Position numbers and translations under genes: made by a program. This document shows, piece after piece, positions 3,013 to 36,978 of a stretch of DNA of 64,000 nucleotides (positions within the stretch are counted from its first letter, which is position 1; each line of letters opens with the position of its first letter). The stretch spans positions 206,234,978-206,298,977 of the forward strand of contig CP136066.1 in NCBI GenBank assembly GCA_032622095.1. Direction: 5' to 3'. The stretch comes from Siphonodentalium dalli. Lineage: Eukaryota; Mollusca; Scaphopoda; Gadilida; Siphonodentaliidae. The notes under the pieces are model-generated. The model worked only from the letters and a program-made list of their open reading frames with translations. It was not told where the DNA came from and searched no databases.

Positions 3013-3021
3013 CAAATGTGT
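3013..3021 (+). repeat. Left 9-bp target site duplication of the 10.8-kb element
   Basis: CAAATGTGT directly abuts the first base of the inverted terminus AGCAGCGTGAATTT. The same nine bases follow the opposite terminus at 13,861-13,869. The right copy continues AGCAGC, so a longer shared 15-mer is possible. Nine bases is the length that keeps the two inverted ends symmetrical. Confidence 0.8.
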
Positions 3022-3061
3022 AGCAGCGTGAATTTCGTTACTTATTCCTTATTCGTTATTC

Positions 3062-6000
3062 AAAAAATTTGGGAAAATGTGGCAAATGACCATGGCAACG
3101 TCTTAAGTAGGGCGAGACAAAATTTCCTGCGAAAAAAAATTCTGGAAAAAAGTTTTTAAATGCCTCGAAAATAGGCAAAGTCCGAAAATAAACGGAAATA
3201 GTCCGAAACAAGTGCAGGGTCGTAAATGGCCACCTCGGCCGAAAATTTTGGGCCGAAAAGATTTTCGGTCGAGTCAGAAAAAGTGGGTCGAATCCCAGTT
3301 TTCGCTCTGCTCGGTCGGGAAAATTTCGGAAAATGTGGCAAACTGTCACATATTAAAAAATGGCCACCTGGGCCGAACTTTTTGGGGCGAAAAGTTTTTG
3401 GGTCGAGTCCGAAAAAGTGGGTCAAATAGAAATTCCCGCTTTGCTCGGTCAGGAAAATTTGGGAAAATGTGGCAAATGACCATGGCAACGTCTTAAGTAG
3501 GGCGAGACAAAATTTCCTGCGAAAAAAAATTCTGGAAAAAAGTTTTAAAATGCCTCGAAAATAGGCAAAGTCCGAAAATAAACGGAAATAGTCCGAAACA
3601 AGTGCAGGGTCGTAAATGGCCACCTCGGCCGAAAATTTTGGGCCGAAAAGATTTTGGGTCGAGTCAGAAAAAGTGGGTCGAATCCCAGTTTTCGCTCTGC
3701 TCGGTCCGGAAAATTTCGGAAAATGTGGCAAACTGTCACATATTAAAAAATGGCCACCTGGGCCGAACTTTTTGGGCCGAAAAGTTTTTGGGTCGATTCC
3801 GAAAAAGTGGGTCAAATATAAATTCCCGCTTTGCTCGGTCAGGAGAATTTGGGGAAATGTGGCAAATGACCATGGCAACGTCTTAAGTAGGGCGAGACAA
3901 AATTTCCTGCGAAACAAAATTCTGGAAAAAAGTTTTTAAATGCCTCGAAAATAGGCAAAGTCCGAAAATAAACGGAAATAGTCCGAAACCAGTGCAGGGT
4001 CGTAAATGGCCACCTCGGCCGAAAATTTTGGGCCGAAAAGATTTTGGGTCGAGTCAGAAAAAGTGGGTCGAATCCCAGTTTTGTCGCTCTGCTCGGTCGG
4101 GAAAATTTCGGAAAATGTGGCAAACTGTCACATATTAAAAAATGGCCACCTGGGCCGAACTTTTTGGGCCGAAAAGTTTTTGGGTCGAGTCCGAAAAAGT
4201 GGGTCAAATAGAAATTCCCGCTTTGCTCGGTCAGGAAAATTTGGGAAAATGTGGCAAATGACCATGGCAACGTCTTAAGTAGGGCGAGACAAAATTTCCT
4301 GCGAAAAAAAATTCTGGAAAAAAGTTTTTAAATGCCTCGAAAATAGGCAAAGTCCGAAAATAAACGGAAATAGTCCGAAACAAGTGCAGGGTCGTAAATG
4401 GCCACCTCGGCCGAAAATTTTGGGCCGAAAAGATTTTGGGTCGAGTCAGAAAAAGTGGGTCGAATCCCAGTTTTCGCTCTGCTCGGTCGGGAAAATTTCG
4501 GAAAATGTGGCAAACTGTCACATATTAAAAAATGGCCACCTGGGCCGAATTTTTTGGGCCGAAAAGTTTTTGGGTCGAGTCCGAAAAAGTGGGTCAAATA
4601 GAAATTCCCGCTTTGCTCGGTCAGGAAAATTTGGGAAAATGTGGCAAATGACCATGGCAACGTCTTAAATAGGGCGAGACAAAATTTCCTGCGAAAAAAA
4701 ATTCTGGAAAAAAGTTTTAAAATGCCTCGAAAATAGGCAAAGTCCGAAAATAAACGGAAATAGTCCGAAACAAGTGCAGGGTCGTAAATGGCCACCTCGG
4801 CCGAAAATTTTGGGCCGAAAACATTTTGGGTCGAGTCAGAAAAAGTGGGTCGAATCCCAGTTTTCGCTCTGCTCGGTCGGGAAAATTTCGGAAAATGTGG
4901 CAAACTGTCACATATTAAAAAATGGCCACCTGGGCCGAACTTTTTGGGGCGAAAAGTTTTTGGGTCGAGTCCGAAAAAGTGGGTCAAATAGAAATTCCCG
5001 CTTTGCTCGGTCAGGAAAATTTGGGAAAATGTGGCAAATGACCATGGCAACGTCTTAAGTAGGGCGAGACAAAATTTCCTGCGAAAAAAAATTCTGGAAA
5101 AAAGTTTTAAAATGCCTCGAAAATAGGCAAAGTCCGAAAATAAACGGAAATAGTCCGAAACAAGTGCAGGGTCGTAAATGGCCACCTCGGCCGAAAATTT
5201 TGGGCCAAAAAGATTTTCGGTCGAGTCAGAAAAAGTGGGTCGAATCCCAGTTTTCGCTCTGCTCGGTCGGGAAAATTTCGGAAAATGTGGCAAACTGTCA
5301 CATATTAACAAATGGCCACCTGGGCCGAACTTTTTGGGCCGAAAAGTTTTTGGGTCGAGTCCGAAAAAGTGGGTCAAATAGAAATTCCCGCTTTGCTCGG
5401 TCAGGAAAATTTGGGAAAATGTGGCAAATGACCATGGCAACGTCTTAAGTAGGGCGAGACAAAATTTCCTGCGAAAAAACATTCTGGAAAAAAGTTTTTA
5501 AATGCCTCGAAAATAGGCAAAGTCCGAAAATAAACGGAAATAGTCCGAAACAAGTGTGGTGCCTTAAATGGCCACCTCGGCCGAAAATTTTGGGCCGAAA
5601 AGATTTTGGGTCGAGTCCGAAAAAGTGGGTCGAATCCCAGTTTTCGCTCTGCTCGGTCGGGAAAATTTCGGAAAATGTGGCAAACTGTCACATATTAAAA
5701 AATGGCCACCTGGGCCGAACTTTTTGGGGCGAAAAGTTTTTGGGTCGAGTCCGAAAAAGTGGGTCAAATAGAAATTCCCGCTTTGCTCGGTCAGGAAAAT
5801 TTGGGAAAATGTGGCAAATGACCATGGCAACGTCTTAAGTAGGGCGAGACAAAATTTCCTGCGAAAAAAAATTCTGGAAAAAAGTTTTAAAATGCCTCGA
5901 AAATAGGCAAAGTCCGAAAATAAACGGAAATAGTCCGAAACAAGTGCAGGGTCGTAAATGGCCACCTCGGCCGAAAATTTTGGGCCGAAAAGATTTTGGG

Positions 6001-6370
6001 TCGAGTCAGAAAAAGTGGGTCGAATCCCAGTTTTCGCTCTGCTCGGTCCGGAAAATTTCGGAAAATGTGGCAAACTGTCACATATTAAAAAATGGCCACC
6101 TGGGCCGAACTTTTTGGGCCGAAAATATTTCGGGCCGAGTCCGAAAAAGTGGGTCAAATAGAAATCCCCCCTCTGCTCGGTCAGAAAAATAGGTAAAATG
6201 TGGCAAATGACCATGGCAACGTCTTAAGTAGGTCGAGAAAAAATTTCCTGTCAAAAAATATTCTGGAAAAAAGTTCAAAAATGCCTCGAAAATAGGCAAA
6301 GTCTGAAAATGAACGGAAATTGGCCGAAACAAGTGGTGGGTCATTAATGGACACCTCGGCCAAAAATTTC
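3062..6370 (+). repeat. Left arm: 390-bp tandem repeat, about 8.5 units
   Basis: The period is 390 bp, judged from recurrence of CAACGTCTTAAGTAGGGCGA near 3,108, 3,488, 3,878, 4,268, 4,658, 5,048, 5,438, 5,828 and 6,218. Each unit is itself three blocks of about 130 bp. Two are diverged copies of one another, each starting at TGGCCACCT and containing GTCGAGTC, AAAAAGTGGGTC and a GAAAATGTGGCAAA end. The third starts at CATGGCAACGTC. Inner units are nearly identical and the last one, next to the core, is the most diverged. Long frames across the array on both strands are by-products of a repeat length divisible by three and are not treated as genes. Confidence 0.95.
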
Positions 6371-6558
6371 GGGTCTTGAGTAAAGACTCGACTTTAGGCA
6401 GCAGGTACTTCTGAAACAGATCAGGATAGGTATGTCGGTATCTGGATATTGGAACGTGTTAGCTCTAAGACAACTTTGGAGTTGAATACTCCACCAGTCC
6501 TGTACTTAGCCTCGCTATTAAAGCCGAACGCCTTATTCGTCATTATTATATTGTATAC

Positions 6559-7298
6559 GTGTATACATATAATAGTAGCTTCGCTATAGGTACGTTCATA
6601 ACACTCACAGATGTCCAAAAAGGCGAGGCGGTGGAACTCCTCCAATGCATTGACAACCGCGGTTGGGATCTACGAGTTGGCCTCCGCTCAATCACTTATA
6701 CAGTTTGGTGGTACAACATAAACAATGGGGAGTCGTTCTCGTGGAAGAACAGTCGCGGAATTATTAAAGAAATAGACGTTCCTCCGGGGCTGTATAACTT
6801 CACACATATATGGGACCTTGTCGAAGAAAACATTGACACCATACTGGCGGTGAGCAAAGTTAATGGTTTGATAATCTAACCGTGGATGATGGGCAGGAGA
6901 TCTTATTTACAAATGGACTGCTGTCCATCGATCTTTTTTACAGATGGACTGCTGTCCTTACTTGGATTGGACGACGGTTTAAATGGCCAGTGGCTCTCTG
7001 CGGGCACATCTACTGGGGACCGCCCGTCAACTTTGCATCCACAAAAATGCCTCATCTGCACTTGGAGCAGATAAACAGATCTAGTCCCGTTGTAGATGAG
7101 GATCCATCCAACATCCTGGCAACGAGTGGGTTTGACTGTCTCTGATTTTGTGCCATCGGCACCCTCCAAGTCGAGCATCCTGAGTTCAAACGTCTTCAGT
7201 GCTGAACACAGAGTGCATTGAAGATAGAGGTCCGCGATGATAGAGGTGCACGTCTGAATAGTGACCTACCTATCAGTGTGGTACTAGAGATACGATGA
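6559..7298 (+). pseudogene. Decayed capsid-like (minor capsid/penton-type) protein of the element
   Basis: The first 107 codons are open (6,559-6,879) and contain features such as LRVGLRSITYTVWWYN and DVPPGLYNF. The same protein then continues in other frames through FTDGLLSLLGLDDGL (about 6,935-6,980), HLEQINRSS and PSNIL (about 7,060-7,115). It ends with LPISVVLEIR and a TGA at 7,296-7,298. A phrase encoding FT(N/D)GLLS is duplicated around 6,905-6,955, and several frameshifts separate the segments. The composition (aromatic-rich beta segments, no catalytic motif) and the position next to the integrase are consistent with the small jelly-roll capsid proteins of Polinton-like elements. That assignment is an inference from pattern, not a proven homology. 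The true start is unclear, since an inverted repeat (TTGTATAC / GTATACA) overlaps the first codons. Confidence 0.5.
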
Positions 7299-7830
7299 GT
7301 ATCTACGGCCCTATAGAGTTTTCTGCACTCAGTGAGAGTTCCTACGGAACTGGTACTCCGCCGGGTAGTGCCCTGATTACTATCTGGGCATAATTCAATG
7401 GCAGCGTCACGTTGGTGGTTTACTCGGAAGGGGCGGCGATCGGCCGTTCACCATGGGGAACTCGGCTACTGGGGATAGGTTGTGTGGATACCCCGTACTA
7501 GCGAATGGTAAAATAATACGAATGGGCATGTCCGCGTCTAATGGTGACTTTGCCGCGGTTGAGGTTATAAACGGCAAAAAGACCACGGAGCAAAAATATC
7601 TAGTGAGAAACAGAAGAGGACGAGGGTGTTTGCAGATCCATTGAAGCTGCGACGGTGTAATGTAATACCGTTTGACTGGAAAGACGACCATTGTGGACGA
7701 AGTCGCAAATTCAACGAGATGAAAACTGAAATCCGGACTAGGGCACGAAAAACGCACGCCGCGGTGATGGATGGCGAGGCAAAAAAGCACTTATTCAGAA
7801 AGGCAGAGAAGAAGCCAAGGCGATTATAGA
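7295..7830 (+). pseudogene. Decayed element protein of unknown function
   Basis: An ATG at 7,295 overlaps the preceding TGA as ATGA and opens a 32-codon frame (MSIYGPIEFSALSESSYGTG...) that stops at 7,391-7,393. Protein-like sequence continues in other frames: a stretch around 7,453-7,640 with YPVLANGKIIRMG and NGDFAAVEVINGKK, then a basic C-terminal part to about 7,827 rich in Lys, Arg and Glu (KFNEMKTEIRTRAR, KKHLFRKAEKK). I do not recognise the family. The 4-base overlap and tight spacing suggest the two genes were once co-transcribed within a compact element. It could be another virion or DNA-binding protein. Confidence 0.4.
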
Positions 7831-7927
7831 AAAGTTATCAGTTTCGCGGTAGTGTAAACTCGTTCCCGTTCCTAAAGAACTGGCTGAGCCTCCTTATTAG
7901 TATACGTAATTTTATTGTGACTGTCAA

Positions 7928-7968
7928 TGTATTACAAAGTAATAATATGTATTACAAAGTAATAATAT
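7928..7968 (+). repeat. Tandem duplicate of a palindromic TATTAC-AAA-GTAATA motif before the integrase
   Basis: The 20-bp phrase TGTATTACAAAGTAATAATA occurs twice head to tail, and each copy contains the inverted repeat ATTAC/GTAAT. It lies directly upstream of the integrase remnant and downstream of the unknown gene. It may be a promoter or protein-binding site of the element, or a simple local duplication. Confidence 0.45.
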
Positions 7969-8897
7969 GAACAGCAAGGTGTCTAGTCGCATCGGGACAA
8001 TCTACTACAGCCCGAGGGTTACTGGAAGGGGCTTGCAGCAATCAAGAACCTCGCGGCAGCAGCCAATGTTTCTGCCAGATGGCCCAAGAAGCAGGCCATC
8101 TGGCAGATATACCTACCCAATCCGCATGTGCCAAGGCCCAAGTTTGACGAGCCAGTGCCAAATGAAGTCCACCAGGCCGACCTGCTTTTTCTGCCTCATG
8201 ACCGGGTGGTTCGCAAGACATACAAATACGCACTCACCGTCGTCGACGTGGCCTCTCGATACAAATAAGCCGAGCCCCTCGCGGATGCCATTGAACGGAT
8301 CTACAGTCGAGGCCCTCTTAGATGGCCGAAATTGCGCCAGGTCGACCCGGGGCTCGAGTTCATGGGTGCTGTGAGCCTCCTGCTAAGCAAGCACAGCGTT
8401 CAGGTGAGACGGGTCCGTGTGGATGTCCACCGACACCAGGGGGTCGTGGAGCGCTTCAACCAACACGCCCAGCAGATGAAGCTTCCCGCCGGTCAAAGGT
8501 CGACTGAATGGGTGGTTCGACTGCCCGCTGTTGTATCGTATCTGAACAATGAAATGACTCGTCTGACCGAAAAAAAGCCCTCTGATGCCATCAAGATCAA
8601 GTCAGTGAAAACCCTCTTCTGTTGTTCCAGGTCGTCCAATGGGGCCCAAAAAGCAAAAGCACCCCTCGCGAGTGGGCGTTCGTTACATCTACCAGCTTGG
8701 CGAGCTGGAAGGGGGCCGCCGACGCACAACTGACCCTGTGTGGTCCCTACATGTGTACCAACTTGAACGCTTGTCACCAAGCGCCCGACGAGCCTGTGCT
8801 CTACCATTTAGTGGATGGGCCAGCGCGCGGATTTGTCCGGAAAGTGTTGCTTGTGGTGCCTCCCGACACCCAGCTGTCACCAGCTAGTTCTGTATGA
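7967..8897 (+). pseudogene. Decayed retroviral-type (Polinton-class) DDE integrase
   Basis: Integrases of this class join element ends to target DNA using a D,D-35-E triad. The visible core contains HQADLLFLPHD (first Asp) followed by ALTVVDVASRY at about 8,170-8,262, QVDPGLEFMG (second Asp) at about 8,341, and HRHQGVVERFN (catalytic Glu) near 8,430-8,462. It continues LPAVVSYLNNEMTRL and KKPSDAIK. A C-terminal SH3/chromo-like region follows (VRYIYQLGELEGG and PVLYHLVDGPARGFV) and ends at a TGA at 8,895-8,897. Damage: a frameshift near 8,015, a TAA at 8,266-8,268 in the core, and further shifts near 8,620 and 8,770. The zinc-binding N-terminus is not evident. All three acidic residues survive in one frame apart from the TAA, so the family call is firm although the gene is dead. 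Confidence 0.85.
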
Positions 8898-8937
8898 ACT
8901 GTTAGAAGGACTAGACACTAGGTGTCTCGTTCCATGA

Positions 8938-9130
8938 ACAATGCTGCAGCCCCTCTTTTTCGGTTGCACTCTAGACAGGTCAGCCTCACATCTCTCTGCA
9001 GTGCCCTTTGTTGTTATCCAGCCAGTCGACACTAAATTACTGTGTGTCTTTGGATTGGAAGGCCAGAGCAGCCCAATCTCGCACGCCATGCAGCGGTTCT
9101 GTTGGGCTTCACGGAAATCGAGGATATAGT
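8938..9130 (-). pseudogene. HNH-like zinc-ribbon nuclease module at the C-terminal end of the minus-strand gene
   Basis: On the minus strand a CxxC knuckle reads RCMACEIGLLW at about 9,075-9,100. After a one-base frame change a second knuckle reads TCLECNRKRG near 8,955-8,985. A CxxC...CxxC pair with Asn-Arg-Lys-Arg after the second knuckle is the pattern of HNH/endonuclease VII-type ribbon nucleases. The central His-bearing loop is degraded here. Upstream, a charged linker (RQDQANGRQGF, VDYILDF) connects it to the helicase remnant with no obvious intergenic gap, so it was probably the last domain of a multidomain protein. It faces the integrase end with only about 40 bp between them. Confidence 0.6.
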
Positions 9131-10375
9131 CGACCTTGAGATTGAATCCCTGGCGTCCATTAGCCTGGTCCTGGCGCTTGTATACCACAAGCTTCCTTTG
9201 TATTTCCTTGCAGGCCTGGCATCGGAACACTCTTCCGGTGGACAGTTTACCCGTTCGAGCTGTTGCAAATACTCCACGCGGGATACGGCTAAGTAGCACA
9301 TATTGGACCACTGGAGGTAGTCGTCGATGATCCAGACATTCTGAGCGTCGTGGACCGTAAGTCTCTGGCTCGATTGGACGGTGAAAGCATAGCCCAGGCG
9401 CCAATCATCGGTTTTAATAGCACACTCGGCGGCCTCGATATAGACCGCAACGACGTCATTGAGAACAAGCTCTTCTCTGTGCGACGGGTCGCCAGTGCCT
9501 GCCATGGGATTGCGACGTCAATGTCCTGCTTTCGGCTGTCCTTGGGTGGTAAAGGATAGACACTGGGTTATCTAGGAAATGCTCCTTATGGCGTCGGAGC
9601 AACAGCTCATGTGTCTGGTCGCGGACCTTCTGGCGGCTGGTGATGATTAGGTCACCGGGCCTCCACTGCTCCACAAATCGGTCACCCAGTCAGCTCGGGA
9701 GAGCCCTCCGCATTTCCTGGCATTGGACTTTGTCACTATGAAGGCGTATACGCTTTTTCAGGGCTTTGATGGCTTCATCTTTTGCTCTGTTGTCGACACC
9801 AAACTCTTCGTAGTAGTCTGCCTTTTTTGCAACCAATGGCGAGGCATTTCACCTGCAATCGGTGGCGGCTGTCCTTGATCCCCGCAGCAAATTACATGGA
9901 CGCCATGTTGGTCACGTCAGTTTGAGAAAATCTCCAGGATAGGCCGGGGCACAGCGCAGACCTCGCCCCAGATGATGGCGCGCGTGATGAACTTCTGCCC
10001 CATGCGGTCGGACATCCAGGCATTCTGACCACTCCATCGGAAGAAGCTGTGGTATGTCTGTGCTTTGACCCCACGGGGCCACATTTCTTTCGCGAGGCAA
10101 TGGGTCGAGGTAATTACGGGGGTCTCTTACACGGAAGAGCTCAATCGCTCTTGTGGTCTTGCAGCTGCCCCCTCCATCATTAAGGTAGCTCAGCCGGTGC
10201 CGGGTCAGTTCGTCGTTGTAGCTGGGCGCCGTTGATTCCGCCATCGCTTTGGCTTGGCTACAGTATTCTGGCTTGGAGAAGAACTCGGCGTGTTCCTGCG
10301 GCATGTACAACTGCTCTCCCTTGTAGTGCCACTGAGCGGCATGAACCCTGTCTCGGGCCGGTGGCCTGAGAGTTA
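9131..10375 (-). pseudogene. Decayed superfamily 1 (Pif1/RecD-like) DNA helicase domain
   Basis: Reading the minus strand, a P-loop appears as LNDGGGSCKTTRAIELF at about 10,140-10,195; the usual Gly before Lys is Cys. Then come AQTYHSFFRWSG (about 10,030-10,070) and a motif II-like segment IIWGEVCAVP (about 9,950-9,985) in which the normal acidic pair is only partly kept. Later GDLIITSRQKVRDQTHELL (about 9,595-9,655) leads to the C-terminal RecA lobe with TVQSSQRLTVHD (motif V-like) and YLAVSRVEYL (motif VI, with the arginine finger) at about 9,285-9,385. SF1 helicases of this kind unwind replication forks or hairpins. Stops and shifts are scattered, for example near 9,690. The P-loop frame continues without a stop from the polymerase region upstream, suggesting a fusion. 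Confidence 0.8.
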
Positions 10376-11575
10376 GCTCGTATAGTGACTCCTGAGACAG
10401 TTGCGGCAGTATCCAGGGAGATACTCCACCTGTGGCACGTACGCCTAGACACCGTCAAGTTTCTGCAACGCGGTCTTCTGGACGTAAATGCTATCAGTGG
10501 CCACCCGGACAGCCTAATCGGGTTCAAATCTTGCCAGCATAGCGAGGAGGTTGATGTGGGCAAAGGCCAGCATTGAGGCCCTCACGTGGGTGTACTGGGG
10601 CTGCGAGCCATCGTAGTATGTGAGAATGTGGCCAAAGGGACACCGTTGGGGTGCGCCAACAAGACTGCCGCTTTTACGGGTGTCACTTACCAAGAAGTCA
10701 AGCTCTCCCTGGTCGACCACAAGCCTCCGTGTCAGTCTTTTGTCGTCGACCTTGCTGCCCTGGGTGAACTTGCCTATGATGCTGCAGCCTTGATCACGAT
10801 ATTCAGGGAGCCAGACCTCGGTTCGTTTCTCAAAGGTGATGATGGCCTCACGGACATTCAGGCTCTTCGGGAGACCGGACTCAACCAGGAAGGCGAGCAG
10901 GGGTGCGAGGGGGGGGGGGGGGCAGCACTGATCTGCGGAATGCCTTCCCAACCAGGCGGGATGACTGGATGGCAGTTAGGGGCGAACTCCCATTCCTGGA
11001 CCTCGGCAAAACCAGTGCCTATATCCCTGAGGACGGGGGCCGTTTATTGCGACCCGGGTCATGTGGTGGCTGGGTGCCATAATCTGTCAAATTGTGGCTT
11101 GGCCTCACCATGACCTTGGAATCTGGCCGGGTAGCAGGCTTTCATATCGATGCTGACGACGTCTCTTGTATCGTAGCCCATCGCATTCCAAAGGCTTCCA
11201 TGCTCGACGCAGGCTTTCTGCATGTCATCTCCGAGGTTAGCCGGGGTCGGTTTCCAGCCGTTGTGGTCTTTGGCCACGATACTGGCTGCGTGGTTCACAC
11301 CGAAGGCTCGGTCTGCGAGCGACTAATCGCCCAGAACTCTGCATGCTTCCTGTAGGTTTTGATGAGTCTCCCGTGTCCTGTAATTGCGGCCGTCTAGCAC
11401 AAACTGGTCCACATTGAGCTGTCTGTCTTGGCCCCCACAGCAGTCAGACTGCAATCGGCTCGTCCAGTATTGCCCCTCTGATTACTTGCCAGACGTCGCT
11501 TTCGTAGAAGTTGACCTCCCTGGACTATGGGAAGTGCAGGTCCTTGGACCATGCATGGCCGTTGTGGCAGATGAG
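10376..11575 (-). pseudogene. Decayed family B DNA polymerase (DNA_pol_B_2-like) domain
   Basis: Minus-strand fragments run in order from about 11,575: FYESDVWQVIRG, VLDGRNYRTRETHQNLQEAC, then VVSIDMKACYPARF at about 11,120-11,165, which fits PolB motif A (DxxxxYP). After a shifted region, a 146-codon open segment (10,514-10,951) holds FTQGSKVDDKRLTRRLV, ILTYYDGSQPQYTH and ASMLAFAHINLL, the motif B neighbourhood. Motif C follows as VRVATDSIYVQK at about 10,470-10,500. A TAG interrupts the frame just before motif C, and a run of 14 G (10,909-10,922) marks a slippage site. The N-terminal exonuclease region is absent: the right arm of repeats begins at about 11,580, so the gene is truncated or was rearranged when the arm expanded. 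Polintons carry protein-primed PolB; whether this one is of that subtype cannot be decided from these fragments. Confidence 0.85.
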
Positions 11576-11579
11576 CTTT

Positions 11580-13818
11580 ATATCTATTTTCGAGGCATTT
11601 TTGAACTTTTTTCCCGGATTTCTTTTTCACAGGAAATTATGTCTCGCCCTACCTAAGACGTTGCCATGGTCATTTGCCACATTTTCCCAAATTTTTCTGA
11701 CCGAGCAGAGCGGGAATTTCTATTTGACCCACTTTTTCGGACTCGACCCAAAAACTTTTCGGCCCAAAAAGTTCGGCCCAGGTGGCCATTTTTTAATATG
11801 TGACAGTTTGCCACATTTTCCGAAATTTTCCCGACCGAGCAGAGCGAAAACTGGGATTCGACCAACTTTTTCGGACTCGACCCAAATTTGTTTCGGCTGA
11901 AAATTTTTGGCCGAGGTGGCCATTTAGGACCCCGCACTTGTTTCGGCCAATTTCCGTTCATTTTGGAACTTTGCCTAATTTCGTGCATTTTGGAACTTTT
12001 TTTCTAACTTTTTTTTTTACAGGAAGTTTTGTCTCGCCCTACTTAAGACGTTGCCATGGTCATTTGCCACATTTTCCCAAATTTTCCTGACCGAGCAGAG
12101 CGGGAATTTCTATTTGACCCACTTTTTGGGACTCGACCCAAAAACTTTTCGGCCCAAAAAGTTCGGCCCAGGTGGCCATTTTTTAATATGTGACAGTTTG
12201 CCACATTTTCCGAAATTTTCCCGACCGAGCAGAGCGAAAACTGGGATTCGACCAACTTTTTCGGACTCGACCCAAATTTTTTTCGGCCCAAAATTTTTGG
12301 CCGAGGTGGCCATTTATGACCCTGCACTTGTTTCGGCCAATTTCCGTTCATTTTCGGACTTTGCCTAATTTCGTGCATTTTGGAACTTTTTTTCGAACTT
12401 TTTTTTTCATAGGAAGTTTTGTCTCGCCCTACTTAAGACGTTGCCATGGTCATTTGCCACATTTCCCCAAATTTTCCTGACCGAGCAGAGCGGGAATTTC
12501 TATTTGACCCACTTTTTGGGACTCGACCCAAAAACTTTTCGGCCCAAAAAGTTCGACCCAGGTGGCCATTTTTTCATAGGAAGTTTTGTCTCGCCCTACT
12601 TAAGACGTTGCCATGGTCATTTGCCACATTTTGCCAAATTTTCCTGACCGAGCAGAGCGGGAATTTCTATTTGACCCACTTTTTGGGACTCGACCCAAAA
12701 ACTTTTCGGCCCAAAACGTTCGGCCCAGGTGGCCATTTTTTAATATGTGACAGTTTGCCACATTTTCCGAAATTTTCCCGACCGAGCAGAGCGAAAACTG
12801 GGATTCGATCCACTTTTTCGGACTCGACCCATATTTTTTTCCGCCCAATTTTTTTGGCCGTGGTGGCCATTTATGACCCCGCACTTGTTTCGGACAATTT
12901 CCGTTCATTTTCGGACTTTGCCTAATTTCGTGCATTTTGGAACTTTTTTTCCAAATTGTTTTTTCATAGGAAGTTTTGTCTCGCCCTACTTAAGACGTTG
13001 CCATGGTCATTTGCCACATTTTGCCAAATTTTCCTGACCGAGCAGAGCGGGAATTTCTATTTGACCCACTTTTTGGGACTCGACCCAAAAACTTTTCGGC
13101 CCAAAACGTTCGGCCCAGGTGGCCATTTTTTAATATGTGACAGTTTGCCACATTTTCCGAAATTTTCCCGACCGAGCAGAGCGAAAACTGGGATTCGACG
13201 CACTTTTTCGGACTCGACCCAAATTTGTTTCCGCCCAAAATTTTTGGCCGAGGTGGCCATTTATGACCCCGCACTTGTTTCGGCCAATTTCCGTTCATTT
13301 TCGGACTTTGCCTAATTTCGTGCATTTTGGAACTGTTTTTCGAATTTTTTTTTCACAGGAAGTTTTGTCTCGCCCTACTTAAGACGTTGCCATGGTCATT
13401 TGCCACATTTTCCCAAATTTTCCTGACCGAGCAGAGCGGGAATTTCTATTTGACCCACTTTTTGGGACTCGACCCAAAAACTTTTCGGCCCAAAACGTTC
13501 GGCCCAGGTGGCCATTTTTTAATATGTGACAGTTTGCCACATTTTCCGAAATTTTCCCGACCGAGCAGAGCGAAAACTGGGATTCGACACACTTTTTCGG
13601 ACTCGACCCAAATTTGTTTCCGCCCAAAATGTTTGGCCGAGGTGGCCATTTATGACCCCGCACTTGTTTCGGCCAATTTCCGTTCATTTTCGGACTTTGC
13701 CTAATTTCGTGCATTTTGGAACTTTGTTTCCAAAATTGTTTTTCACATGAAATTTTGTCTCGCCCTACGTAAGACGTTGCCATGGTCATTTGCCACATTT
13801 TCCCAAATTTTTTGAATA
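11580..13818 (-). repeat. Right arm: 390-bp tandem repeat in inverted orientation, about 6 units
   Basis: This is the same 390-bp unit as the left arm, reverse-complemented, with CTTAAGACGTTGCCATGG near 12,041, 12,431, 12,599, 12,989, 13,379 and (mutated) 13,770. The copies differ from the left arm at shared positions such as TTTCGTGCATTTTGGAAC, so the two arms have been homogenised separately. A shorter interval (about 168 bp instead of 390) between 12,431 and 12,599 is a partial-unit duplication. Confidence 0.95.
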
Positions 13819-13860
13819 AGGAATAAGGAATAAGGAATAAGTAACTAAATTCACGCTGCT

Positions 13861-13869
13861 CAAATGTGT
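13861..13869 (+). repeat. Right 9-bp target site duplication of the 10.8-kb element
   Basis: CAAATGTGT immediately follows the inverted terminus ...TTCACGCTGCT and matches the left copy exactly. Confidence 0.8.
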
Positions 13870-18627: not shown

Positions 18628-19571
18628 GCATATATATATTGACATTGAAGTGAATGTGCATTACGGTATAGTTATCTATTTACAGTTATATAGGATAGCA
18701 TATATATATATTGACATTGAAGTGAATGTGCATTACGGTATAGTTATCTATTTACAGTTATATAGGATAGCATATATATATATTGACATTGAAGTGAATG
18801 TGCATTACGGTATAGTTATCTATTTACAGTTATATAGGATAGCATATATATATATTGACATTGAAGTGAATGTGCATTACGGTATAGTTATCTATTTATA
18901 TATTGACATTGAAGTGAATGTGCATTACGGTATAGTTATCTATTTATATATTGACATTGAGGTGAATGTGCATTACGGTATAGTTATCTATTTATATATT
19001 GACATTGAAGTGAATGTGCATTACGGTATAGTTATCTATTTATATATTGACATTGAGGTGAATGTGCATTACGGTATAGTTATCTATTTATATATTGACA
19101 TTGAGGTGAATGTGCATTACGGTATAGTTATCTATTTATATATTGACATTGAAGTGAATGTGCATTACGGTATAGTTATCTATTTATATATTGACATTGA
19201 AGTGAATGTGCATTACGGTATAGTTATCTATTTATATATTGACATTGAAGTGAATGTGCATAGTTATGTGCATTACGGTATAGTTATGTGCATTACGGTA
19301 TAGTTATCTGTATTACGGTATAGTTATGTGCATTACGGTATAGTTATGTGCATTACGGTATAGTTATGTGCATTACGGTATAGTTATGTGCATTACGGTA
19401 TAGTTATCTGTATTACGGTATAGTTATCTGTATTACGGTATAGTTATCTGTATTACGGTATAGTTATCTGTATTACGGTATAGTTATCTGTATTACGGTA
19501 TAGTTATCTGCATTACGGTATAGTTATCTGCATTACGGTATAGTTATCTATTTACAGTTATATAGGATAGC
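18628..19571 (+). repeat. Nested minisatellite with 72-, 48- and 20-bp periods
   Basis: Counting the phrase TTGACATTGAAGTGAATG, the start positions 18,639, 18,711, 18,783 and 18,855 give a 72-bp period. From 18,855 to 19,239 the period is 48 bp (eight steps). From about 19,268 to 19,548 only a 20-bp core, TGCATTACGGTATAGTTAT plus one base, repeats about 14 times. The longer units contain the shorter ones whole. An open frame across the 72/48-bp part exists because both lengths are multiples of three; the 20-bp part breaks it. Confidence 0.95.
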
Positions 19572-36078: not shown

Positions 36079-36378
36079 CCAGCCACCTCCCTACCTGCAT
36101 GACCGGGACCGTTGAGTACCGATATCATTTCCGGTGTCCTTGTGCACGTGCACTTGATTAGCTGGATAAGTTTACCCCCCATCGCCCCTCGTCAATTAAA
36201 AGTACTCAATCCGAGTCGATGGTCCCAAGTATCATCAGATTCCATCAATTACAACATTTTTTTAAATGCCGATTCAGTTATCAGAATCGATTAATTTCGT
36301 TAAAATAATGCTAACCAGTCAACTATGGTTCACCAAAAACAAAAACAACATTTCTTTAAATGCCGCTTCAGTTATCAG
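35969..36378 (+). repeat. Satellite island 1 (MITE-derived, about 410 bp)
   Basis: Starting at GGTGAGAGCTTTCCGATG, this contains the rest of the mariner-type MITE, a CATTTCCGGTGTCC segment, then the TTAAAAGTACTCAATCCGAG end of the TTAA-flanked MITE family (36,195 on). It also has a short internal duplicate of TTTAAATGCCG(A/C)TTCAG. It ends at TTATCAGGTTCCTGTGGATT, where the 21-bp array begins. Confidence 0.85.
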
Positions 36379-36567
36379 GTTCCTGTGGATTTCCATTGGG
36401 TTCCTATGGATTTCCCTTGGATTCCTGTGGATTTCCCTTGAGTTCCTGTGGATTTCCCTTGGATTACTGTGGATTTCCCTTGAGTTCCTGTGGATTTCCC
36501 TTGGATTCCTGTGGATTTCCCTTGAGTTCCTGTGGATTTCCATTGGGTTCCTGTGGATTTCCCTTGG

Positions 36568-36978
36568 GTGAGAGCTTTCCGATGAATGGCAACAAGCCAT
36601 ATTTCCGACTAAATCCTGAAAAGTTACCCATAATTCTGCTATGTTTAAGGAGTCCATTACTTAGGACATTACTGTACCAGCCACCTCCCTACCTGCATGA
36701 CCGGGACCGTTGAGTACCGATATCATTTCCGGTGTCCTTGTGCATGTGCACTTGATTAGCTGGATAAGTTTACCCCCCCCATCGCCCCTCGTCAATTAAA
36801 AGTACTCAATCCGAGTCGATGGTCCCAAGTATCATCAGATTCCATCAATTACAACATTTTTTTAAATGCCGATTCAGTTATCACAATCGATTAATTTCGT
36901 TAAAATAATGCTAACTAGTCAACTATGGTTCATCAAAAACAAAAACAACATTTCTTTAAATGCCGCTTCAGTTATCAG
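36568..36978 (+). repeat. Satellite island 2
   Basis: Same 410-bp sequence as island 1 with a few substitutions. The left MITE terminus is replaced by 21-bp units (CCCTTGGGTGAGAGC). Only about nine repeat units separate it from island 1. Confidence 0.95.

What the first reader, a model, noticed from the sequence alone, without database searches (positions are those of the whole stretch)
3013..13869. 10.8-kb foldback element with perfect 9-bp duplication carrying a Polinton-like gene set
Seen: identical inverted ends starting AGCAGCGTGAATTT, flanked by CAAATGTGT on both sides, with 390-bp tandem units forming the inverted arms. The core holds remnants of integrase, PolB, helicase and a capsid-like protein. 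Known: Polintons have plain terminal repeats and 6-bp duplications, while Foldback elements have tandem-repeat arms and 9-bp duplications but no such genes. The combination suggests either a distinct lineage of large self-synthesising elements or a Polinton-like core captured by foldback arms.
Basis: partly seen in the sequence, partly recalled or inferred. Interest (0 to 1): 0.88.

Follow-up and report, generated by a model that had tools for sequence, protein, structure and literature searches.

The report
Foldback transposon carrying dead virus-like genes
A large jumping-DNA element with long inverted repeat arms carries the broken replication and integration genes of a virus-like element, and in its lineage arms and genes have moved together and recently.

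Summary
Window 3022-13860 is a mobile element with inverted AGCAGCGTGAATTT ends, arms of 390-bp tandem units and a perfect 9-bp duplication. The genome is 2.23 Gb; the end had 830 first-look candidates and 40 scored places, all 97-100% identical; I read loci covering 28 of the 40. Eighteen elements show two ends: 11 have a perfect 9-bp duplication, 2 match in 8 of 9, 2 have a perfect 8-bp one, 3 none, none only 6 bp. Three full-core copies differ by 0.05-0.31% over 1.9 kb of core, at sites with different 9-bp duplications, so arms and core moved as one. The core holds a Maverick/mavirus-type integrase, a probable PolB, a helicase and an endonuclease-VII-like piece, all broken; I found no capsid gene. 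A capsid-plus-integrase locus elsewhere shows no arms in 9.6 kb, and one core-less copy also has a perfect 9-bp duplication. Best reading: a foldback transposon that captured a Maverick-like module and is moved in trans. A Maverick lineage with its own arms and a 9-bp integrase stays open.

The parts
3013..3021 (.). target-site duplication CAAATGTGT, left copy
   Evidence: 9 of 9 match with 13861-13869
3022..3063 (+). left terminal cap: AGCAGCGTGAATTT plus 7-bp TTATTCC-type repeats
   Evidence: shared, with small changes, by the end-bearing loci printed
3064..6373 (+). left arm, 8.5 tandem units of 390 bp
   Evidence: TRF 97% matches; blastn
6374..7900 (+). left core, unidentified broken frames (for example 6469-6879)
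   Evidence: no Pfam match for 6469-6879, 6864-7145, 7563-7829; no match to the capsid or ATPase frames of L040
7987..8882 (+). broken rve integrase: piece 7987-8268 and piece from 8269
   Evidence: homologues; rve in 10 of 10 homologues scanned of 69; tblastn of P0010 to 8155-8882 in three pieces with one in-frame stop
8877..9404 (-). endonuclease-VII/HNH-like piece at the 3' end of the helicase piece
   Evidence: Endonuclease_7 best 6.7e-4, in 4 of 23 homologues at E<=0.1; phrog_2633 0.061 on the frame itself
9032..10454 (-). broken superfamily-1-like helicase
   Evidence: 182 homologues of 9032-9517; UvrD_C_2 in 2 of 23 at E<=0.1; AAA_19 0.0047 on the L010 counterpart of the upstream piece
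10478..11322 (-). broken probable type-B DNA polymerase
   Evidence: 140 homologues of 10514-10975; IDMKACYPA at 11125-11151 and ATDSIYV at 10481-10501 (motif reading recalled); no Pfam or PDB match
11584..13811 (-). right arm, 5 full and 2 partial inverted units of 390 bp
13812..13860 (-). right terminal cap, GAATAAG repeats and end AAATTCACGCTGCT
13861..13869 (.). target-site duplication CAAATGTGT, right copy

Best explanation
A high-copy foldback-type DNA transposon family in which one lineage carries a captured, now dead module of a Maverick/Polinton-like element (rve integrase facing PolB-helicase-endonuclease VII). Shown: arms and core moved as one unit, recently, with 9-bp duplications; copies share a cap of about 27 bp followed by short 7-bp repeats; a core-less copy can have the same duplication. 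Inferred: a transposase supplied in trans binds the cap and inserts with a 9-bp stagger (most likely a Mutator/Phantom-type enzyme as in other foldback families; not found here), and the core is cargo. Also inferred: unequal exchange between the 390-bp units makes the arms shrink and grow.
For: 18 two-ended elements: 11 perfect 9-bp, 2 with 8 of 9, 2 perfect 8-bp duplications, 3 none. A 1602-bp copy with arms and no core has a perfect 9-bp duplication (L036). Over 1.9 kb of core, window, L015 and L018 differ by 0.05-0.31% at three insertion sites. Core-arm junctions are shared: the left one by L012 and L013 (98%) and L016 (85%), the right one by L017 (92%). The integrase was interrupted in every copy where most of it was matched (11 of 11: window, L013, L015, L016, L018-L020, L025, L026, L029, L039), 8 of them with the same pattern of pieces, so the enzyme comes from elsewhere. 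A locus with capsid-like, packaging-ATPase-like and open integrase frames (L040) has no arm or cap by blastn over 9.6 kb. Foldback elements with 9-bp duplications and a Phantom transposase are in print (PMC3169594, passages seen), and rve integrases typically give 6 bp (PMC12220804, passages seen).
Against: No Mutator-type transposase showed up in the frames that I scanned, and I could not search the genome for one. Of the 4 two-ended copies without core, only L036 has a recognisable duplication; L021, L022 and L024 have none (L022 has AGAAAAATA on both sides, offset by 3). L010 has the same ends and an 8-of-9 duplication but PolB/helicase tiles only 77-79% identical; its PolB differences from the window fall 28/31/59 by codon position, which suggests that the two cores descend from PolBs still under selection after they split (its helicase differences, 39/40/45, show no such pattern). 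That would need either two captures or a time when the armed element was self-sufficient.
Confidence: 0.49

Rival explanations
1. A distinct Maverick/Polinton-like lineage that evolved foldback arms and whose rve integrase inserts with a 9-bp stagger; the window copy is a dead derivative moved by live relatives.
For: The integrase model matches the mavirus integrase (4.0e-8) and a MELD virus integrase (8.8e-8) ahead of retroviral ones (low-confidence model). Core sequence sits between these ends in copies from 0.05% to about 22% divergent. All 14 two-ended core-bearing copies have a duplication, against 1 of 4 without core. PolB third-position excess between L010 and the window. Ends begin AG, as recalled for Polintons. 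174 integrase matches in this genome, some with long frames.
Against: L036, without core, has the same 9-bp duplication. L040 lacks arms. A motif like the foldback end, AGCTGTGTGAATTTAGTTAGCGGC, lies 181-516 bp past an integrase match at 7 of 7 places, but shared sequence continues past it at all 7, so it is not shown to be an outer end. 9 bp would be unusual for an rve integrase.
Confidence: 0.41
2. Two unrelated elements lying nested by chance, one inserted in the other, at this place only.
For: Nested insertions are common (recalled); the core genes are dead.
Against: The same arm-core junctions recur in other copies, and near-identical full units lie at three sites with different duplications.
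Confidence: 0.03
3. Assembly artefact or segmental duplication.
For: Long tandem arrays are prone to misassembly (recalled).
Against: Different perfect 9-bp duplications at 11 places on six contigs (C1, C2, C4, C6, C7, C9).
Confidence: 0.02

Closest known systems
Tm1, Mutator/Foldback family of root-knot nematodes (PMC3169594, passages seen)
   Same: Composite inverted arms of tandem repeats with variable copy number, mostly 9-bp (8-10) duplications, MITE-like and gene-bearing members.
   Different: Tm1 units are mostly 14 bp and the gene is a Phantom/MULE-like transposase; here units are 390 bp and the genes are integrase, probable PolB, helicase, endonuclease-VII-like.
Maverick/Polinton elements and mavirus
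   Same: rve integrase of the mavirus/MELD-virus kind together with a probable PolB.
   Different: 9-bp rather than 5-6-bp duplications (for the latter), tandem-repeat arms, no capsid or ATPase found in the element.
Tlr1 element of Tetrahymena, pPolB-SF1 helicase-GIY-YIG fusion (described in PMC12721341, passages seen)
   Same: Polymerase, SF1-like helicase and a nuclease in that order on one strand (pieces).
   Different: Nuclease is endonuclease-VII/HNH-like, not GIY-YIG; whether the three were one gene here is not shown.
Galileo and Drosophila Foldback (abstract beginnings; Galileo also in a passage; the rest recalled)
   Same: Long internally repetitive inverted arms.
   Different: P-type transposase in Galileo; shorter units (recalled).

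Membership tests
Foldback-type transposon (structural class) | long inverted arms built of tandem repeats, copy number variable between copies | tested here: met
   left arm from under 1 unit (L015) to 9 (L018)
Foldback-type transposon (structural class) | 9-bp target duplication | tested here: met
   11 of 18 perfect, 2 with 8 of 9, 2 of 8 bp, 3 none
Mutator/Phantom superfamily | MULE transposase encoded by an autonomous member | not tested
   no such domain in the frames that I scanned; the genome-wide family search was not run, the tool being mostly busy
Polinton/Maverick | rve integrase of the Maverick kind | tested here: met
   second catalytic D and the E 35 residues apart (D26, E61)
Polinton/Maverick | protein-primed type-B polymerase | tested here: inconclusive
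   homologues and recalled motifs only; no Pfam or PDB match; model pLDDT 44.5
Polinton/Maverick | 5-6-bp target duplication | tested here: not met
Polinton/Maverick | capsid protein and packaging ATPase | tested here: not met
   20 core frames gave no Pfam match except a weak rve; capsid and ATPase frames of L040 have no match in the window at E<=1; a protease was not looked for
Tlr-type replication fusion | PolB-SF1 helicase-nuclease in one gene | tested here: inconclusive
   pieces in that order on one strand, all broken

The most novel reading that the evidence does not exclude
A self-synthesising Maverick-like lineage that has evolved foldback arms and an rve integrase with a 9-bp stagger, whose branch-cutting endonuclease VII serves the cruciforms that such arms form; core-less foldback copies are its parasites.
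Probability: 0.35. Interest if true: 0.85.

Novelty: new variant of a known kind. Interest (0 to 1): 0.62.

Why it matters
Foldback arms are known with Mutator-type and P-type transposases (PMC3169594, passages). I saw no printed case with a Maverick-type integrase and polymerase in four searches of open-access papers; I saw listings and abstract beginnings only (20 of 48 papers listed, 15 of 161, 15 of 39, 12 of 163). If captured, it shows a route by which virus-like replication genes are spread by an unrelated transposon. If native, it breaks the rule that rve integrases of this group duplicate 5-6 bp, and one genome with many recent copies makes that testable.

Tried and rejected
Capsid in the window core: no support. 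Fold of the PolB homologue: poor model, not searched. The integrase model is also poor (pLDDT 47.7); its Foldseek hits have low TM-scores and rest on 3Di plus sequence. Viral-contig scans with pieces and alignments found no relative and no copy of the end. The bacterial/archaeal genome scan gave one 3152-bp contig filed under an archaeal MAG with a polymerase relative.

The idea that the integrase of the capsid-bearing locus L040 lies beside the same outer end looked strong (17 of 20 letters, 0 of 60 simple shuffles; 7 of 7 motif places next to an integrase match, 0 in the reversed control) but failed: shared sequence goes on past the motif at all seven. Also, 7 motif places stand against 174 integrase matches. 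Of five further integrases whose downstream side I read, one (L041) had the motif; L042, L043 and L045 run into PolB/helicase/nuclease-like sequence (my reading of the letters, not searched), and L044 has neither. Genes inside L023 and beside L037 are not shown to belong to the armed elements; the one in L037 lies outside its small element as I read its inverted arms.

Counts dropped or partial: 28 of the 40 scored ends were read. Eight end-bearing loci (L011, L014, L023, L027, L028, L035, L037, L038) gave no mate with at most 1 mismatch in the stretch and are not in the tally of 18; L027 has a possible mate with 2 mismatches and no duplication. One end of L018 has 1 mismatch. The 15-of-26 core count includes L010 at 77-79% and L012 and L028, which keep 568 bp only.
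Full report
What is there. The element runs from 3022 to 13860 (10,839 bp) between two copies of CAAATGTGT. Its ends are identical for 14 bp and occur nowhere else in the window at up to 2 mismatches. Behind each end is a cap with 7-bp TTATTCC-type repeats, then 390-bp tandem units, 8.5 on the left, 5 full and 2 partial inverted ones on the right. The core is 6374-11583.

Copies. The 88-bp end had 830 first-look candidates, 40 of them scored, all 97-100% identical. I fetched 25 loci which, with the window, cover 28 of these 40 ends (extensions). Eighteen elements show two ends (motif with at most 1 mismatch). Their duplications: perfect 9 bp in window, L012, L013, L015, L017, L018, L019, L025, L029, L036, L039; 8 of 9 in L010 and L016; perfect 8 bp in L020 and L026; none recognised in L021, L022, L024. 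Split by content, 14 of 14 with core sequence have a duplication and 1 of 4 without core (L036). With equal base use a perfect 9-bp match has a chance of 1 in 262,144 per pair. No pair is explained by 6 bp. By eye the duplications have no common sequence.

Do arms and core travel together? Fifteen of 26 end-bearing loci carry at least part of the window's core, 11 show none, some of these seen only in part. Of those read, only window, L015 and L018 keep the whole core; L013, L019, L020, L025, L026 and L039 share one deletion that begins after window 10498, so a deletion derivative was itself amplified. Over window 8374-10300 the three full copies differ by 0.05-0.31%; L013, L019, L020, L025 and L026 differ by 0.58-1.25% among themselves and from the full copies; L017 differs from the window by 4.4% and L016 by 6.3%. 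The left core-arm junction recurs in L012, L013 and L016 and the right one in L017, of the five loci compared. So arms and core are one mobile unit in this lineage. L010 has the same ends, related arms (84-86%), and helicase and PolB tiles at 79% and 77%; its junctions were not seen to match.

The genes. A single open piece, 8269-8733, found 69 homologues among 304 candidates, best 1.6e-41. Ten of the 69 were scanned: all ten hit rve, seven above Pfam's cut-off. The second D and the E are 35 residues apart (D26, E61 of the piece). A model of homologue P0010, of low confidence, found the mavirus integrase first and a MELD-virus integrase second in a library of viral models, then retroviral integrases, and retroviral intasomes in the PDB. 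On the other strand the piece 10514-10975 found 140 homologues among 167 candidates (best 8.0e-66) and the piece 9032-9517 found 182 among 212 (best 1.5e-37). The first is a probable type-B polymerase: IDMKACYPA and ATDSIYV read like motifs A and C (recalled), but none of 21 homologues scanned hits Pfam at E<=0.1 and the profile hits nothing in the PDB at E<=1. The second is a helicase some of whose homologues end in an endonuclease-VII/HNH-like domain (of 23 scanned: Endonuclease_7 in 4, best 6.7e-4; HNH in 7, best 0.008; UvrD_C_2 in 2, best 0.086). The order polymerase-helicase-nuclease recalls the Tlr1 fusion of Tetrahymena (PMC12721341, passages). Some homologues are named as proteins of Candidatus Thiodiazotropha MAGs, one of Elysia marginata, one of Funneliformis geosporum; the first are perhaps host DNA in symbiont bins (inference).

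All of these genes are broken in the window. The integrase is interrupted in each of the 11 copies in which most of it was matched, and 8 of these (window, L013, L015, L018, L019, L025, L026, L039) break into the same pieces, P0010 residues 1-169, 172-225 and 222-262 or nearly so. Differences from the window by codon position show no pattern in L017 (28/35/30), L016 integrase (15/13/15) or L010 helicase (39/40/45), but do in L010 PolB (28/31/59) and in the integrase of L040 (24/81/39). The last two suggest that those lineages split while the genes were under selection; they do not say whether the arms were already there. Frame breaks blur such counts.

The wider family. P0010 has 174 matches in this genome (1925 candidates, 143 scored, so a lower bound). 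One of the best, fetched as L040, has within 9.6 kb frames matching a major capsid N-terminal domain (6e-4, below Pfam's cut-off) and a poxvirus A32-type packaging ATPase (9.7e-6, above it), and a 418-residue open frame with the integrase (the P0010 match runs on past its end and counts 2 stops), but no arm unit and no cap by blastn. So a capsid-bearing Maverick-like locus exists in this genome apart from foldback arms, as far as 9.6 kb shows. A motif like the foldback end lies past the integrase there and at six other places, but shared sequence continues beyond it at all seven, so I do not count it as evidence for shared ends.

How it works. Shown: unit mobility, 9-bp duplications, shared ends, dead cargo, a core-less copy with the same duplication. 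Inferred: a trans-acting enzyme. The 9-bp stagger and the arms fit Mutator/Phantom-type foldback families (PMC3169594, passages); the same passages say that different classes of transposase sit between foldback-like arms and that such families are proposed to have arisen independently. A 9-bp stagger would be unusual for an rve integrase, which typically gives 6 bp (PMC12220804, passages). I therefore give capture 0.49 and a native armed Maverick lineage 0.41. The L010 PolB data and the duplications of all 14 core-bearing copies are the main points in favour of the second.

Print. Searches looked for foldback and Polinton features together, or for Polintons with molluscs or duplications; I saw parts of the listings and abstract beginnings, and none of these announces such an element. 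Subscription papers and Repbase were not searched, so priority is not established.

Noticed in passing
window 36978-63442 (and 36378-36569): A 26-kb tandem array of about 1263 copies of a 21-bp unit (84% matches); 21 bp is seven codons, so a repetitive coding sequence is possible.
   Followed up: no
window 18630-19549: Three abutting tandem arrays with periods 72, 48 and 20 that share sequence, as if one unit had shrunk stepwise.
   Followed up: no
L040 (G000:C6:128114800-128124400): Capsid-like, A32-ATPase-like and rve integrase frames in one stretch, apart from foldback arms.
   Followed up: partly
G000, 7 places listed: AGCTGTGTGAATTTAGTTAGCGGC, resembling the foldback end, lies downstream of an integrase match at 7 of 7 places but is followed by shared sequence.
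   Followed up: partly
L023:2620-4358 and L037:5142-5897: P-loop-like (my reading) and zinc-finger-like frames (DUF7128 at 2e-5 in L023) near two foldback ends; L023:3655-4419 is 88% identical to L037 in the other orientation; in L037 outside the foldback element as I read it.
   Followed up: partly
L001: A 3152-bp contig filed under a Diapherotrites archaeal MAG encodes relatives of this polymerase and helicase, perhaps a misbinned eukaryotic contig.
   Followed up: no
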